64,000 nucleotides of DNA from Allobranchiibius huperziae. GTDB taxonomy: Bacteria > Actinomycetota > Actinomycetes > Actinomycetales > Dermatophilaceae. The translations under genes and the position numbers were made by a program. Numbering within the stretch: the first letter of the stretch is position 1; every line of letters starts with the position of its first letter. Shown one piece after another: positions 7,210 to 18,058 of the stretch. The stretch is from assembly GCF_013410455.1 (NCBI RefSeq), contig NZ_JACCFW010000001.1, positions 2,434,929-2,498,928 of the forward strand, read 5' to 3'. The notes beneath the pieces were generated by a model. That model saw only the letters and a list, made by a program, of their open reading frames with translations, did not search any database and was not told the origin of the DNA.

Positions 7210-7992
7210 TCACGCGTCGGCGCCGTGCCGGACGAACGGGTTGCGCAGCACGCCGATGTCCTCGATCTCGACCTCGACGCTCTGCCCGGACTCGACGGGC
7301 CCGACTCCCTCGGGCGTGCCGGTGAGGATCACATCACCGGGCAGCAGCGTGAACGCCTGCGACGCGTACGAGATCAGCGTGGGAATGTCGTGGATCATGT
7401 CGGCGGTCGTGCCGTCCTGCACCACCTCATCGCCCCGGCGGGTGCGCAGCCGCAGGTCGCTGACGTCCAGGTCGGTCTCGATCCAGGGGCCGAGCGGGCA
7501 GAACGTATCGAAACCCTTCGCCCGCGACCATTGTCCGTCGCTCTTCTGCAGGTCGCGCGCGGTGACGTCGTTGGCGCAGGTGTAGCCGAAGATCACCGAC
7601 CGCGCCTCCTCCACCGACACGTCGCGGCACATCCGGCCGATGACGACGGCGAGCTCGCCCTCGTAATCGACGCGCTCGCTCTGCCGCGGCATGACGACCG
7701 GGTCGCCGGGGCCGACGACGGCGGTGTTGGGGATGAGGAACATGAGCGGCTCCTTCGGCGCCTCGCCCCCCATCTCGCGGGCGTGCTCGGCGTAGTTCTT
7801 GCCGATGCCGATCACCTTCGAGCGCGGGATCACCGGCGCGAGCAGGCGCACCTCGTCGACCGTGGTGGTGACGCCGGTGAGCTCGATCTTGGAGTAGAGG
7901 GGGTCGCCGCTGATCTGGGCGATCTTCTCCCCCGCGCCGTCGACCAGCCCGTACGTCGGATCCTCGCCTGTCGTGTACCTCGCAATACGCAC
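7210..7992 (-). CDS. Fumarylacetoacetate hydrolase family protein
   Basis: A 260-residue single-domain FAH-family enzyme; these cleave or hydrate carbon-carbon bonds in catabolism of aromatic and keto acids using a divalent metal. The core metal site reads DYEGELAVVIGR, with further ligands in VFGYTCANDVTARDLQ. The substrate loop TFCPLGPW and the terminal LTGTPEGVGPV are standard. The GTG at 7992 has TAAGGT six bases upstream and no ribosome binding site, which fits a leaderless start. It lies just downstream of cimA on the same strand but seems to have its own promoter. The substrate is unknown. Confidence 0.88.
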   Translation of the reverse strand: MRIARYTTGEDPTYGLVDGAGEKIAQISGDPLYSKIELTGVTTTVDEVRLLAPVIPRSKVIGIGKNYAEHAREMGGEAPKEPLMFLIPNTAVVGPGDPVVMPRQSERVDYEGELAVVIGRMCRDVSVEEARSVIFGYTCANDVTARDLQKSDGQWSRAKGFDTFCPLGPWIETDLDVSDLRLRTRRGDEVVQDGTTADMIHDIPTLISYASQAFTLLPGDVILTGTPEGVGPVESGQSVEVEIEDIGVLRNPFVRHGADA

Positions 7993-7998
7993 GTGTCG

Positions 7999-8004
7999 AC
8001 CTTA
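7999..8004 (-). promoter_or_regulatory. -10 element for leaderless FAH-family gene
   Basis: TAAGGT on the minus strand, six bases before the GTG at 7992, matches TANNNT. No Shine-Dalgarno sequence lies between. Confidence 0.45.
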
Positions 8005-8067
8005 ATCACGCCGGGCGACACCGGCGAACCGAGACCGCCCAGCGCTGCGGGCCGGCGGAGCTCGCGA

Positions 8068-9675
8068 TCAGCGCGCGACCGCCGCGTGAGCGACCGGTTC
8101 CGCGCGCGACGGACACCGCAGCATCCCGAAGGTGAAGGAGTCGACCAGCGCGATCCAGCTGGCGTGCACGATGTTCGGGCCCACCCCCACCGTGGTCCAG
8201 GTGCGCTCGCCGTCGGTGGTGTCGATGAGCACCCTGGTGGTCGCGTCGGTGCCGTGATCGGCGTCGAGGATCCGGACCCGGAAATCGATGAGCTCCAGCT
8301 CGACGAGGCGCGGGTACGCCGGGGTGAGCGCCTGCCGCAGCGCGTGGTCCAGCGCGTTGACCGGACCGTTGCCCTCTCCCACCGCGACCTGCCGGCGTCC
8401 CTCGACGCGAAGCTCCAGGGTCGCCTCGGACAGCGCGCTCGCGCTCCCCTCGGCATCGGTGCGCACCCGCCACGACTCCAGCTCGAAGAGGGCGGCGGGC
8501 CGCCCCTGCACCTCCTCGTGCAGCAGCAGATCGAACGACGCGTCGGCTGCCTCGAAGGTCCACCCCGCGCCCTCGAGTTCCTTGACCCGGCGCAAGACCC
8601 GGGCCAGCAGCTCGGGCCGACCGGCGAGGTCGTAGCCGAGCTCGCGGCCCTTCAGCTCGATGCTCGCCCGGCCGGCCATGTCCGAGACCAGCGTGCGCAT
8701 CTCGTTGCCCACCAGCGCCGGGTCGATGTGTTGATAGAGGTCGGGGTCGACCCGTAGGGCGCTCGCGTGCAGCCCGGCCTTGTGCGCGAACGCGCTCGCC
8801 CCGACGTACGGCGCTCGCTCGAAGGGCGGGAGGTTGGTGATCTCGCTGACGGCGTGACTCACGTGCACGGTAGCCGCGAGCTGCCCGTCACTCACCAGTG
8901 GCATGCCGAGCTTGAGCTGCAGGTTCGTGGTCACCGCGATGAGGTCGGCGTTGCCGGTGCGCTCGCCGTACCCGTTGACGGTGCCCTGCACGTGGGTCGC
9001 ACCGGCTCGCACCGCCGCGATGCTGTTGGCGACGGCGCACCCTGTGTCGTTGTGACAGTGGATACCCAGACGCACTCCGGTGCGCTGGGCAGTCGCGGAG
9101 ACGACACGCTCGATGTCGTGCGGCAGCATGCCGCCGTTGGTGTCGCAGAGGACGACCGCCTCCGCGCCGGCCTCGGCGGCCACCCGCACCACCTCGACGG
9201 CGTACGCCGGATCGGCCTCGTACCCGTCGAAGAAGTGCTCCGCGTCCAGGTAGACGGTGCGGCCGTGCGCGACCAGGTGGGCCACCGTGTCGGCGACCAT
9301 CGCCAGGTTCTCCGCCGGAGAGGTGCGCAGCGCATCGGTCACGTGGCGCACGTGCGACTTGCCGACGAGCGTCACGACGGGGGTCTGCGCCTCCAGCAGC
9401 GCGGCGACCTGCGGGTCGTCGCACGCGCGTACGCCGGCGCGCCGGGTGCTCCCGAACGCCGCGAGCCGGGCGCTGCCCAGGACGAGCTCGGTGCGTGCCC
9501 GCCGGAAGAACTCGGTGTCCTTGGGGTTCGCGCCGGGCCAGCCGCCTTCGATGAAGCCGACCCCGAGCTGGTCGAGCAGACGCGCGACCGCCAGCTTGTC
9601 GTCGACGCTGAGGTGCAGACCCTCCTGCTGGGCGCCGTCGCGCAGGGTCGTGTCGTAGAGGTCGAAGCCACTCAT
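8068..9675 (-). CDS. cimA: (R)-citramalate synthase
   Basis: Condenses pyruvate and acetyl-CoA into citramalate, the threonine-independent entry to isoleucine. The 535-residue chain starts with the HMGL-like catalytic barrel: DTTLRDGAQQEG at 7-18, GGWPGANPKD, and the metal-site HCHNDTGCAVANS near residue 200. It ends with a LeuA-type allosteric dimerisation domain (from about 395). An AAAGG ribosome binding site precedes ATG 9675. The gene is preceded by a leader peptide and an intrinsic terminator, so expression is probably attenuated. The C-terminal domain suggests feedback inhibition by an end product. Length and N-terminus favour CimA over 2-isopropylmalate synthase. Confidence 0.93.
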   Translation of the reverse strand: MSGFDLYDTTLRDGAQQEGLHLSVDDKLAVARLLDQLGVGFIEGGWPGANPKDTEFFRRARTELVLGSARLAAFGSTRRAGVRACDDPQVAALLEAQTPVVTLVGKSHVRHVTDALRTSPAENLAMVADTVAHLVAHGRTVYLDAEHFFDGYEADPAYAVEVVRVAAEAGAEAVVLCDTNGGMLPHDIERVVSATAQRTGVRLGIHCHNDTGCAVANSIAAVRAGATHVQGTVNGYGERTGNADLIAVTTNLQLKLGMPLVSDGQLAATVHVSHAVSEITNLPPFERAPYVGASAFAHKAGLHASALRVDPDLYQHIDPALVGNEMRTLVSDMAGRASIELKGRELGYDLAGRPELLARVLRRVKELEGAGWTFEAADASFDLLLHEEVQGRPAALFELESWRVRTDAEGSASALSEATLELRVEGRRQVAVGEGNGPVNALDHALRQALTPAYPRLVELELIDFRVRILDADHGTDATTRVLIDTTDGERTWTTVGVGPNIVHASWIALVDSFTFGMLRCPSRAEPVAHAAVAR

Positions 9676-12738: not shown

Positions 12739-14751
12739 TTGACGACGCTTGCTGCGAAGGAAGCCGCGCACAAGCGCGCCGCCAACACGCCGAAGAAGAA
12801 GCATCGGCCCGCGTTGGACGGCGTGCGCGCTCTCGCCATCGTGCTGGTGATGATCTACCACGCCACCGACAACCTGCCGATGGGCGGTTTCTACTCGGTC
12901 GACGTGTTCTTCGTGTTGTCCGGCTACCTCATCGCCGGCCTGCTCATCTCGGAGAACCGCAAGTGGGGCTCGATCAACCTGGTGAGCTTCTACGTGCGCC
13001 GCGCCCGGCGGCTCCTGCCGGGACTGGTGCTCGCGGTGGTCGGCATCACGGTGATCTGCCCCTACGTGCTCGACCGGTACGCGCGCGCCACCATGCGCTC
13101 GGACGGGATCGCCACCGTCTTCTACTACGCCAACTGGCATTTCATCTCCGAGGGCGAGTCGTACTTCCAGCAGTACGGCGACCCCTCGCCGTACCGGCAC
13201 ATGTGGACCCTCGCCATCGAGGAGCAGTTCTACTTCGTGCTGCCGGCGTTGATGATCGCTCTCATCGCGATGACTCGCGGCAACCGGCGACGCATCACTC
13301 AGATCCTGGTGGGGCTGTCGGTCCTGTCCGCCGTGTGGATGGCCTGGCTCTACAAGCCTGGCGCCGACCCCTCCCGCATCTACTACGGCACCGACTGCCG
13401 CGCTCAGTCGCTGCTGCTGGGCAGCGCGCTGGCGGTCTATCTCAGCTACGCGCCGCGGCGCCGCCTGACGCGCAACTACCGACGCCTGACCGCGATCGGG
13501 GCGACGGGGATGGCCGTGATGGCCGCGTTCTTCCTGTTCGTCAGCTACCAGAACGACTTCACCTGGCGTGGCGGATTCTTCGTCTTCGTGCTCGCCACCC
13601 TGGCGGTCATCGCGGTCGTGGAACTGGACCAGGAAGGCCCGATCGCCGCCATCTTCGGCTTCCGCTCGTTCGCCTGGATCGGCAAGATCTCCTACGGGCT
13701 CTACCTGTGGCACTGGCCGATCTTCGTGATGCTCACCCCCAAGCGGGTCGGATTCGGCGGTCCGGGCCTGTTCCTCCTGCGTTTCGTGCTCAGCTTCGCC
13801 GCCGGTGCCGCGTCGTTCTACCTCGTGGAGAACCCGATCCGCATCAACGGGCTGCGCAAGTGGATCGGCACGCTCGGCGGCACGTTGAGCGGCGTCCTCG
13901 TCCTGCCTCTCACCGCGCTCGCGGTCATCCTCACGACCTCCGCCGCCAGCGGAAATCCCCTGGTGGAGGGTCAGACCGGCAAGAGCTACGGCGTCGGCGG
14001 GATGGACGTGAACAAGCCGGTCCGGGTGCTCGTGCTGGGTGACTCGGTCGGGATCTCGCTGGAGTTCAGCTTCCCCCAGTCCGCCTTCCCCCAGGTCGGC
14101 CTCGACGGCAACGCCGTCTTCGGCTGCGGGCTCATGCCCCAGCAACTCGCGATCTACGGCAAGAAGCAGACCGCGAAAGCCGCCCCGGAATGCTCGAACC
14201 TCTACCCAGGCTGGAAGTCGCACCTGCAACGCGACAAGAACCCGGTCGTGGTGCTGAGCGTCGGCGGTTGGGAGGTCTTCGACCATGTCACCCCGACGGG
14301 TTCGATCGTGAAGGCGGGGACCCCGGCGTACGCCGCGTACCTGCTCTCCTACCTGAACAAGGCCTTGGCGCAGATCGGCCCGAACTCCAAGGTCGTCATC
14401 CCCAACGTGCCCTGTTACGACTGGACCTCCTCGGTGGTCGCCGGTGTCGACATCGCCCCGATCCGCAACGCGGCGTACCGCGGGAAGGCCGTCAACGCCG
14501 TCCTCGCGACGTTCGCCCGGCAACATCCCTCGCAGGTGCACATCGCGGACGTGGCGTCGAAGCTGTGCCCAGGCGGCAAACCCCGCGACGTCATCGACGG
14601 GGTGAAGGTGCGCCTCGACGGGGTCCACTACACCGTCGCGGGCGGCAAGCTCGTCTGGGGCTGGCTGATGCCGACCATCTACGCGGCCGTCGGCTACAAG
14701 CCGACCGCTCCCACCACACCGACGACCCCGACCCCCACCACCTCGCAGTGA
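12739..14751 (+). CDS. OafA/YrhL-type membrane acyltransferase with C-terminal SGNH domain
   Basis: A 670-residue integral membrane protein likely to O-acylate a cell-surface glycan or lipid. The first 400 residues are the acyltransferase-3 domain: RPALDGVRALAIVLVMIYHA with the catalytic His, then DVFFVLSGYLIAGLL, about ten membrane spans, and the SYGLYLWHWPIF motif near 315-327. Residues from about 430 form an extracytoplasmic SGNH hydrolase-like domain: VLVLGDSVG nucleophile block and late DGVHYT with Asp and His. The end is a Thr/Pro-rich tail. The TTG start at 12739 is preceded by GAAGAG. The acceptor is unknown; it stands alone among amino acid genes. Confidence 0.88.
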   Translation: MTTLAAKEAAHKRAANTPKKKHRPALDGVRALAIVLVMIYHATDNLPMGGFYSVDVFFVLSGYLIAGLLISENRKWGSINLVSFYVRRARRLLPGLVLAVVGITVICPYVLDRYARATMRSDGIATVFYYANWHFISEGESYFQQYGDPSPYRHMWTLAIEEQFYFVLPALMIALIAMTRGNRRRITQILVGLSVLSAVWMAWLYKPGADPSRIYYGTDCRAQSLLLGSALAVYLSYAPRRRLTRNYRRLTAIGATGMAVMAAFFLFVSYQNDFTWRGGFFVFVLATLAVIAVVELDQEGPIAAIFGFRSFAWIGKISYGLYLWHWPIFVMLTPKRVGFGGPGLFLLRFVLSFAAGAASFYLVENPIRINGLRKWIGTLGGTLSGVLVLPLTALAVILTTSAASGNPLVEGQTGKSYGVGGMDVNKPVRVLVLGDSVGISLEFSFPQSAFPQVGLDGNAVFGCGLMPQQLAIYGKKQTAKAAPECSNLYPGWKSHLQRDKNPVVVLSVGGWEVFDHVTPTGSIVKAGTPAYAAYLLSYLNKALAQIGPNSKVVIPNVPCYDWTSSVVAGVDIAPIRNAAYRGKAVNAVLATFARQHPSQVHIADVASKLCPGGKPRDVIDGVKVRLDGVHYTVAGGKLVWGWLMPTIYAAVGYKPTAPTTPTTPTPTTSQ

Positions 14752-14797
14752 CCTGAGAAGTCAGTTGCAGAGGGTGCAGCGGGCCGCACATCCTCGG

Positions 14798-14817
14798 GAA
14801 CTGACATCTCGAAGGGG
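14798..14817. repeat. Imperfect inverted repeat, left flank of the exonuclease-TerD gene
   Basis: GAACTGACATCTCGAAGGGG matches the reverse complement of 16861-16880 at 18 of 20 positions. The pair encloses only the lower-GC gene at 14844-16738. They may be borders of an acquired cassette or two binding sites of one regulator. Confidence 0.4.
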
Positions 14818-14843
14818 CGGCTTTCTTCCCCTTACGGCGCCCG

Positions 14844-16738
14844 TCAACTTTCGACGTCGACCCCGTACTGGCGCGCGAGATCAGCCAACGTCCGCTCATA
14901 CCCCTGGCCGATGGACCGAAACCGCCACACGTCGCCGCGCAGGTAGAAGTCGGCCAGAAGCAACGATGTCTCCGACGTTGCCGCATCGATCGTCGTCGAG
15001 GCGATGGGTTCTCCGAGGCTCGAACGCAGCGTGAGCTCGAGTGCGCCGATGTCACCGAACGTGCAGTCACCATCGAGCGATGCAGCAATTCGGATGCAGC
15101 GAGGTTCGGCGAGCAGGCGGGGTCGACCTCTGCCGTGACCTCGCCGCTGATGTCCAGGCCGAGAGCGATCGCCCCCGACGGATGCGCCGGCTGGTTGTAG
15201 AACACGAAGTCCTCGTCGCATCCCACGGCGGCTGTCTGATCGAGGACGAACCCGACGACGTCAACTTCGCCGCGCACCAGATTGGAATCCCACTCGACGG
15301 TGAGCGCGAACTGTTTGCCGTCCGGCAGGTCGATCACACCGCCCCGAGGGAGCTGAACGCCGCCGGGCAGCGCCAGAGGCCGATCGTGTGGCGTCCGCTC
15401 CTGGGGCGAGAGCTTCCTCGCAGGTTCTTCGACGACGAGACCTTCACCACGGAGCATGCATGGGCCCATCTCGCGCGCGCGAGCCAGCCGTGGATCGTGA
15501 TCGGCTCTCGCCAGCATCACCACGTGCGTGATAGACGCCGTCAGCCGTACAGCAGGTTGCGCACCAAGCGCCATGACCCGGCGACGCACTCGCAAACACT
15601 GCTCGTGCGATCCGCCGAGCACCAAGACTCGGTCGCCCGGGCCGATGGAGTTCTGGGGGCTGACGGCGTCGTTGTCGGCGGGGCGCACCTGTGTGTCGGG
15701 AGCGGGGGCAGGGGTGGCCCGTGAACTCTGCTCGGAACGCACCCGGCGCTCCACCTTCGCCTCGAGATCCGTGGCGCCTGTGTCCATGCGCACGAGTTCC
15801 TGCATCAACGGCGTCCCCGGCCGGACTGAGCCGAGCATCCGCCGGAAGTCCGGCTCAGTGATCAGGGGGATGCCGAGACGTATTGCCTGAGCGAACTTCC
15901 TCGTCTGAGACTGCTCGGAATTGCAGATCACCAGGCTCGTGCGCGAGCTGACCGAATTCATGACGTCCAGGCCGGCGGCCGTGGCGTCGCGCATCAACTC
16001 AGAGCGATCGAGCGCGGTCGGGCCCGTGATCACCACCTTCATGCCCTGCACCAACTGCTGACCCACCTGCCACGCACCGGGCCACAGCCAGGGGCATTTC
16101 ACCGCTCTGGGTGCCGGCGACGGATACATCGAGCCGACGGACGTACGGCTGTCGATCGTCAGGGGAAGGTCGAGTCCCATCTGATAGGCCATGACGAGTT
16201 CGAGTCGTAGGACCTCCAGCAACACCCGCACGTCGTCGACAGCGTCGTGAGCGCGGTGTTGTGACAATCCCCAGTAGTTGGCGAGCGTTCCAAGTGTGAG
16301 GTTCGGCACGTTGAGATTGAGTCGTCTACTCAAGGCAACCGTGCAGAGTCGGCGTTCGATGGCGAGGTCGTACTGTCCCCTGCGGTACTCGGACTGCAGG
16401 AACGACCAGTCGAACTTCGCGTTGTGAGCGACGAGGACGCGACCATAAAGGAGGTCGGCGAGGGGCGCCGCTACATCTCGAAATTTCGGCGCCCCACGCA
16501 GATCTGAGGCCGTCAGACCGTGGATATGGGTCGGGCCAGGATCGCGCTCCGGGTCGATCAGGGTCGACCACGACTCACCTATCGCGCCGTCCGAACGCAT
16601 CTGGGTGACCGCGATCTGCACTACCCGGTCTCGTGACGACACCAGACCAGTGGTCTCCACGTCAACCACCGCATAATCGTGCGGATAGCAGGTCGAGACC
16701 TGAGACCCGAGCGGGCCCGTCACTTCGTCCAGAATCAT
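14844..16738 (-). CDS. DEDDh exonuclease-BRCT-BRCT-TerD fusion with an apparent frameshift
   Basis: Residues 1 to about 180 are a DnaQ-like 3'-5' exonuclease with DVETTGL, HNAKFDW and HRAHDAVDD supplying the acidic and His residues. About 230-305 is a BRCT domain (MKVVITGPTALDRSEL onward). About 370-440 is a weaker second BRCT. From about 460 a TerD domain starts (LPRGGVIDLPDGKQ). The TerD domain breaks off at VTAEVDP and continues in another frame (IRIAASLDGDCTFGDIGALE to the stop at 14844). One base missing in the G run at 15119-15122 would explain it. Start 16738 has GGGGGAG before it. GC is visibly lower than in neighbours, suggesting transfer. A role in DNA damage or stress response is inferred. 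Confidence 0.75.
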
Positions 16739-16860
16739 CGAGTCTCCCCCCACCGGCAGCCGTACGTCGTTTCGGCGGCTGCGAACCGCAGCACAACCTA
16801 ACCCGCCCGATGACGTGCCGCCTCGATTTGTCGAGGTCAGTTGACGGTGTACCCGACCGA

Positions 16861-16880
16861 CCCCCTCGAGATGTCACTTC
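16861..16880. repeat. Imperfect inverted repeat, right flank of the exonuclease-TerD gene
   Basis: The partner of 14798-14817 (18 of 20 matches in inverted orientation). It lies about 120 bases upstream of the start at 16738, so it may instead be part of that gene's control region. Confidence 0.4.
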
Positions 16881-16911
16881 AGACGGTTGACGGCGCCGGG
16901 CACCGTCTGAA
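16878..16911. repeat. Inverted repeat in the gap between ilvC and the TerD-fusion gene
   Basis: Perfect 10-bp arms TTCAGACGGT (16878-16887) and ACCGTCTGAA (16902-16911) enclose 14 bases. No T-tract follows. It stands beside, not inside, the ilvC terminator and may be an operator or a second hairpin. Confidence 0.5.
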
Positions 16912-16952
16912 ATTGACAACTCGAGCGCGGCCCGGTCCCGGATGGAAACGAC

Positions 16953-16985
16953 GAAGGCCGCCACCCTGCGCGGGTGGCGGCCTTC
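16953..16985. terminator. ilvC terminator
   Basis: Perfect 13-bp arms GAAGGCCGCCACC and GGTGGCGGCCTTC surround a seven-base loop, 15 bases past the ilvC stop at 17000. This is a strong GC-rich hairpin that should end the ilvBNC transcript. Confidence 0.8.
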
Positions 16986-16999
16986 GGTGCCTTGCGGTG

Positions 17000-18058
<1,059 letters not shown>

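What the first reader, a model, noticed from the sequence alone, without database searches (positions are those of the whole stretch)
14844..16738. Exonuclease-BRCT-BRCT-TerD fusion on lower-GC DNA, TerD split by one base
DnaQ-type nuclease, two BRCT modules and TerD in one chain suggest a DNA-damage or phage/stress module of the Ter network. The coding DNA is visibly poorer in GC than its surroundings. TerD resumes in another frame at a G4 run (15119-15122), so it is either damaged, a sequencing slip, or a programmed shift giving two products with and without TerD.
Basis: partly seen in the sequence, partly recalled or inferred. Interest (0 to 1): 0.6.

Follow-up and report, generated by a model that had tools for sequence, protein, structure and literature searches.

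The report
Exonuclease-BRCT-TerD gene with a frameshift
An actinobacterium carries a horizontally acquired gene that joins a DNA-trimming exonuclease, two BRCT protein-docking domains and a TerD stress domain in one chain; the family is real and recurs in other actinobacteria, but this copy has lost the reading frame of TerD by one base, recently or through a sequencing slip.

Summary
Confirmed: window 14844-16738 (minus strand) encodes a DEDDh exonuclease, two BRCT folds and TerD. The exonuclease, first BRCT and TerD pass Pfam cut-offs; the second BRCT is shown only by a predicted fold. TerD changes frame at the G4 run 15119-15122. The sister species (Allobranchiibius sp. CTAmp26) has the same gene at the same place with an intact 630-aa frame, as do 19 other aligned full-length relatives (Streptomyces, Kitasatospora, Actinomadura, Rhodococcus, others). 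The break is therefore private to this copy. The tail after the run evolves under the same constraint as the rest (dN/dS 0.06), so the break is recent or a sequencing error. A programmed shift has no support. GC3 is 0.77 against 0.91-0.95 in neighbours, and a congener lacks the gene at this site: a single-gene acquisition. The relatives are stand-alone: 1 of 21 fusion loci has a TerD neighbour, none TerC or TelA, and no full-length copy is viral. Best reading: a paralogue of the actinobacterial exonuclease-BRCT protein PRK06063 with an added BRCT-TerD module, probably trimming DNA ends under stress or phage attack; function untested. Unexpected: the gene is bracketed by two copies of a 56-nt palindrome found mainly in this genus.

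The parts
15123..16738 (-). Reading frame 0 before the run: exonuclease, two BRCT, first part of TerD (start ATG 16738)
   Evidence: 82% identical intact gene in the sister
16208..16669 (-). RNase_T / DnaQ-type DEDDh exonuclease domain (aa 24-177)
   Evidence: Pfam 87.8 bits; active-site columns near-invariant
15854..16051 (-). First BRCT (aa 230-295)
   Evidence: Pfam 36.6 bits
15416..15652 (-). Second BRCT (aa about 363-441), placed by alignment to the sister segment
   Evidence: predicted fold and Foldseek; no Pfam hit
15158..15358 (-). TerD, first part, frame 0 (aa 461-527)
15119..15122 (-). G4 run where the frame changes by one base relative to the sister
14844..15118 (-). TerD, second part, in the other frame, up to the stop
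   Evidence: Pfam 36.9 bits, profile 117-187; dN/dS 0.059
14755..14810 (.). 56-nt palindrome on the 3' side, between the gene and the convergent acyltransferase
16868..16922 (.). 55-nt palindrome of the same family on the 5' side, between ilvC and the gene

Best explanation
A horizontally acquired single gene of an actinobacterial family: a DEDDh 3'-5' exonuclease-BRCT protein (paralogue of PRK06063) extended by a second BRCT and a TerD domain. Most likely the exonuclease trims 3' DNA ends, the BRCT pair docks it on repair or replication proteins or on DNA ends, and TerD ties it to a stress response as a binding or sensing module. Architecture, active-site conservation and acquisition are shown; substrate, partners and trigger are inferred. 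In this copy TerD is split by a recent one-base loss or a sequencing slip; if the sequence is right the strain makes an exonuclease-BRCT-BRCT protein with a truncated TerD and an unrelated tail.
For: Domains by profile and fold. Exonuclease active-site columns (D25, E27, D109, H163, D168 in the sister) at least 90% conserved, and TerD C-terminal columns invariant, in 20 full-length relatives. All domains under strong purifying selection, dN/dS 0.05-0.08. Low GC3, empty site in a congener and patchy occurrence show acquisition. NCBIfam PRK06063 matches aa 15-312 at 351.9 bits, below its cut-off of 389.
Against: No activity, partner or phenotype is known. Rhodococcus L017 has lost active-site residues, so catalysis is not needed in every member. 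No conserved neighbour points to a pathway. The acid-rich loop of classical TerD proteins looks reduced in the fusion (alignment; metal sites not tested).
Confidence: 0.45

Rival explanations
1. The frame break is a sequencing or assembly slip in a short homopolymer, and the gene is intact in the organism.
For: The tail after the run keeps the same constraint as the rest (dN/dS 0.059). The break lies at a run of four G, and all 20 aligned full-length relatives are intact.
Against: About 200 orthologues compared over 400 kb show no general excess of one-base breaks in this genome, and a G4 run is short for a slip.
Confidence: 0.45
2. A programmed frameshift at the run makes two products, with and without a full TerD.
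For: The run offers a re-pairing site for one tRNA (read from the sequence); the tail is under constraint.
Against: No relative has the arrangement; frame 0 does not stop after the run but continues to 14591.
Confidence: 0.03
3. The family is a single-gene anti-phage system in which TerD and BRCT sense infection and the exonuclease degrades DNA.
For: Patchy single gene, horizontally moved. Partial match to the PADLOC candidate PDC-S48. Ter genes have been proposed to act with restriction genes against phage (PMC3710099).
Against: No defence gene recognised in the neighbourhoods, which were compared by clustering and not scanned with defence profiles; no challenge data.
Confidence: 0.25

Closest known systems
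PRK06063 / NF004719, actinobacterial DEDDh exonuclease with one BRCT
   Same: Exonuclease plus first BRCT, aa 15-312 aligned over most of the model
   Different: Scores below the family cut-off; adds a second BRCT and TerD; often a second copy beside PRK06063 in the same genome
TerD family (KP-TerD 2kxt/2kxv, Streptomyces coelicolor 3ibz)
   Same: Same domain by profile, sequence and fold
   Different: Here a C-terminal part of a nuclease; the acid-rich loop of classical TerD looks shortened
PADLOC PDC-S48, phage-defence candidate
   Same: Exonuclease and BRCT segments match
   Different: No match to the TerD part; candidate only, function untested in what I could read
Ter gene clusters (TerC, TelA, TerD), as in this genome at about 18-25 kb of contig 1
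   Same: TerD domain
   Different: No TerC or TelA near any homologous locus

Membership tests
DEDDh 3'-5' exonucleases | RNase_T domain with D-E-D-H-D active-site residues | tested here: met
   lost in Rhodococcus L017
DEDDh 3'-5' exonucleases | Exonuclease activity | not testable with these tools
   needs a purified protein
PRK06063 (NF004719) | Score above the curated cut-off of 389 bits | tested here: not met
   351.9 bits; other fusion copies 356-380
BRCT | BRCT profile or fold, two copies | tested here: met
   first by Pfam; second by predicted fold only; the profile comparison of the two is weak, 14.7% probability
TerD (PF02342) | Profile match over the cut-off along the whole domain | tested here: met
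   two parts in two frames here; whole domain in the sister, 72.3 bits
TerD (PF02342) | Calcium binding | not testable with these tools
   loop looks reduced in the alignment
Ter operon module | Neighbouring ter genes | tested here: not met
   1 of 21 fusion loci with a TerD neighbour, none with TerC or TelA
PDC-S48 | Match along the whole model | tested here: inconclusive
   exonuclease and BRCT segments only
Programmed frameshift gene | Shift conserved in relatives | tested here: not met
   intact single frame in 20 relatives

The most novel reading that the evidence does not exclude
The gene travels as a one-gene cassette bounded by a 56-nt palindrome family (22-nt arms, 12-nt loop) found mainly in Allobranchiibius, and encodes a stand-alone stress- or phage-triggered nuclease in which BRCT and TerD act as sensors. 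In the sister the two bounding copies are 96% identical over 73 nt, loop included, and in congener G001 another low-GC3 gene, with a marginal DUF559 match, is bounded the same way.
Probability: 0.2. Interest if true: 0.65.

Novelty: new variant of a known kind. Interest (0 to 1): 0.4.

Why it matters
It puts the poorly understood TerD domain, a nuclease and BRCT docking domains in one polypeptide, which makes 'does TerD steer DNA processing' testable with a single gene in laboratory Streptomyces. The frame break itself is a minor, strain-level event.

Tried and rejected
Plasmid DNA match: none by megablast. Phage or viral origin: only exonuclease or TerD pieces, no full-length copy. Conserved gene neighbourhood: none outside small groups (Actinomadura; a gene pair in four Streptomyces). 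Single origin of the fusion: the tree of exonuclease plus first BRCT needs two changes, with long branches, so it is unresolved. Old pseudogene: rejected by dN/dS of the tail. Other apparent frameshifts in the genome comparison were mostly antisense ORFs, over-long starts or longer indels. Rfam over 14600-17000: no match. Papers: none held joins TerD, BRCT and exonuclease; the paper on Ter-dependent stress systems (Anantharaman 2012, from memory) is not held, so this architecture may already be listed there.

Full report
What is there. On the minus strand, from ATG 16738, lies a gene of 1.9 kb. Profile searches give an RNase_T/DnaQ exonuclease (aa 24-177), a BRCT (230-295) and the first part of TerD (461-527); the second part of TerD is in another frame at 14844-15221. 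The whole-protein model of the sister matches DnaQ/DinG/PolC-type exonucleases and the TerD structures 3ibz and 2kxt. The relative placement of the domains is not predicted with confidence (pTM 0.40).

The frame break. Against the sister species Allobranchiibius sp. CTAmp26 (82% identical protein, same neighbours ilvC and an acyltransferase) the gene differs by one base at the G4 run 15119-15122; the sister frame is intact, 630 aa. Three further Actinomadura loci hold interrupted or shortened copies, broken elsewhere. After the run, frame 0 continues to 14591 and would add an unrelated tail. Comparing the pieces in their own frames, dN/dS is 0.084 (exonuclease), 0.082 (first BRCT), 0.047 (second BRCT), 0.077 (TerD before the run) and 0.059 (TerD after the run). 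The break is thus recent or not real. A comparison of 400 kb of this genome with 298 kb of the sister (about 200 orthologues) showed no general excess of one-base breaks. That leans slightly to a true mutation but cannot decide it, because one error in about 240 kb of aligned coding DNA is also plausible.

Acquisition. GC3 is 0.773 (sister 0.748) against 0.906-0.953 in ten neighbouring genes. In congener G001, ilvC is followed by leuB with no such gene; in two other genera of the family (G005, G006) ilvC lies next to an acyltransferase with no such gene between. Full-length fusions were found in 4 of 396 phylum genomes besides this one; in the class sample, fusion-type open frames appear in about 7 of 197, judged from score and length. 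Near full-length copies also sit on very large replicons listed as plasmids in Streptomyces and Nocardia, but not in phages or viral contigs.

Relatives and function. Active-site residues are near-invariant except in Rhodococcus L017, which has lost several but keeps BRCT and TerD. The family is not embedded in ter loci: only Actinomadura fibrosa has another TerD gene nearby. PADLOC lists a related exonuclease-BRCT model, PDC-S48, as a phage-defence candidate, but the match is partial. I therefore propose a DNA-end-trimming nuclease guided by BRCT and TerD in stress or phage response. The architecture is shown; the role is inferred.

Palindromes. The gene is bracketed by two imperfect palindromes, 14755-14810 and 16868-16922. 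They belong to a 56-nt family with 22-nt arms and a 12-nt loop; 9 of 22 pairs show changes on both sides, more than in any of 500 shuffles. A covariance model finds about 13 sites in this genome, similar or fewer in two congeners, weaker hits in G005, one in G015, and none in the other 24 genomes searched. In the sister the two bracketing copies form a 73-nt direct repeat, 96% identical. No copy was found in the stretches read at the gene-less sites of G001, G005 and G006 or beside the homologues searched in other genera. Many copies lie at gene ends, often between convergent genes, so a terminator-like or REP-like role is as likely as a cassette boundary; a rough estimate, made after the fact, is about 0.05 genes bracketed by chance per genome. 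A second bracketed gene, low in GC3, with a marginal match to DUF559 below its cut-off, occurs in G001.

Noticed in passing
window 14755-14810 and 16868-16922; L007 5849-5904 and 7913-7968; L232 4173-4228 and 5182-5237: A 56-nt palindrome family, mainly in Allobranchiibius, brackets this gene in two species and a low-GC3 gene in G001; many other copies lie singly at gene ends.
   Followed up: partly
L017 5944-7836 (Rhodococcus sp. CH91): A homologue that has lost several exonuclease active-site residues but keeps BRCT and TerD, so it may be a non-catalytic member.
   Followed up: no
L020 6004-7847, L022 5956-7756, L031 5839-6981 (Actinomadura): Interrupted or shortened copies of the same gene in three Actinomadura genomes; in L020 a second TerD gene (7918-9117, with a part that looks like vWA by eye) lies beside it.
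   Followed up: partly
G000:C1 about 18-25 kb (L002, L003, L004): The host has an ordinary ter cluster with several TerD genes and a TerC-like gene, far from the window.
   Followed up: no
window 16952-16986: Perfect 15-bp inverted repeat just after ilvC, conserved in the sister; probably its terminator.
   Followed up: no
G000:C1 about 2507546-2508726 (positions 227546-228726 of the 400 kb stretch read): A second gene with a length difference out of frame against the sister (4 bases); not examined further.
   Followed up: no
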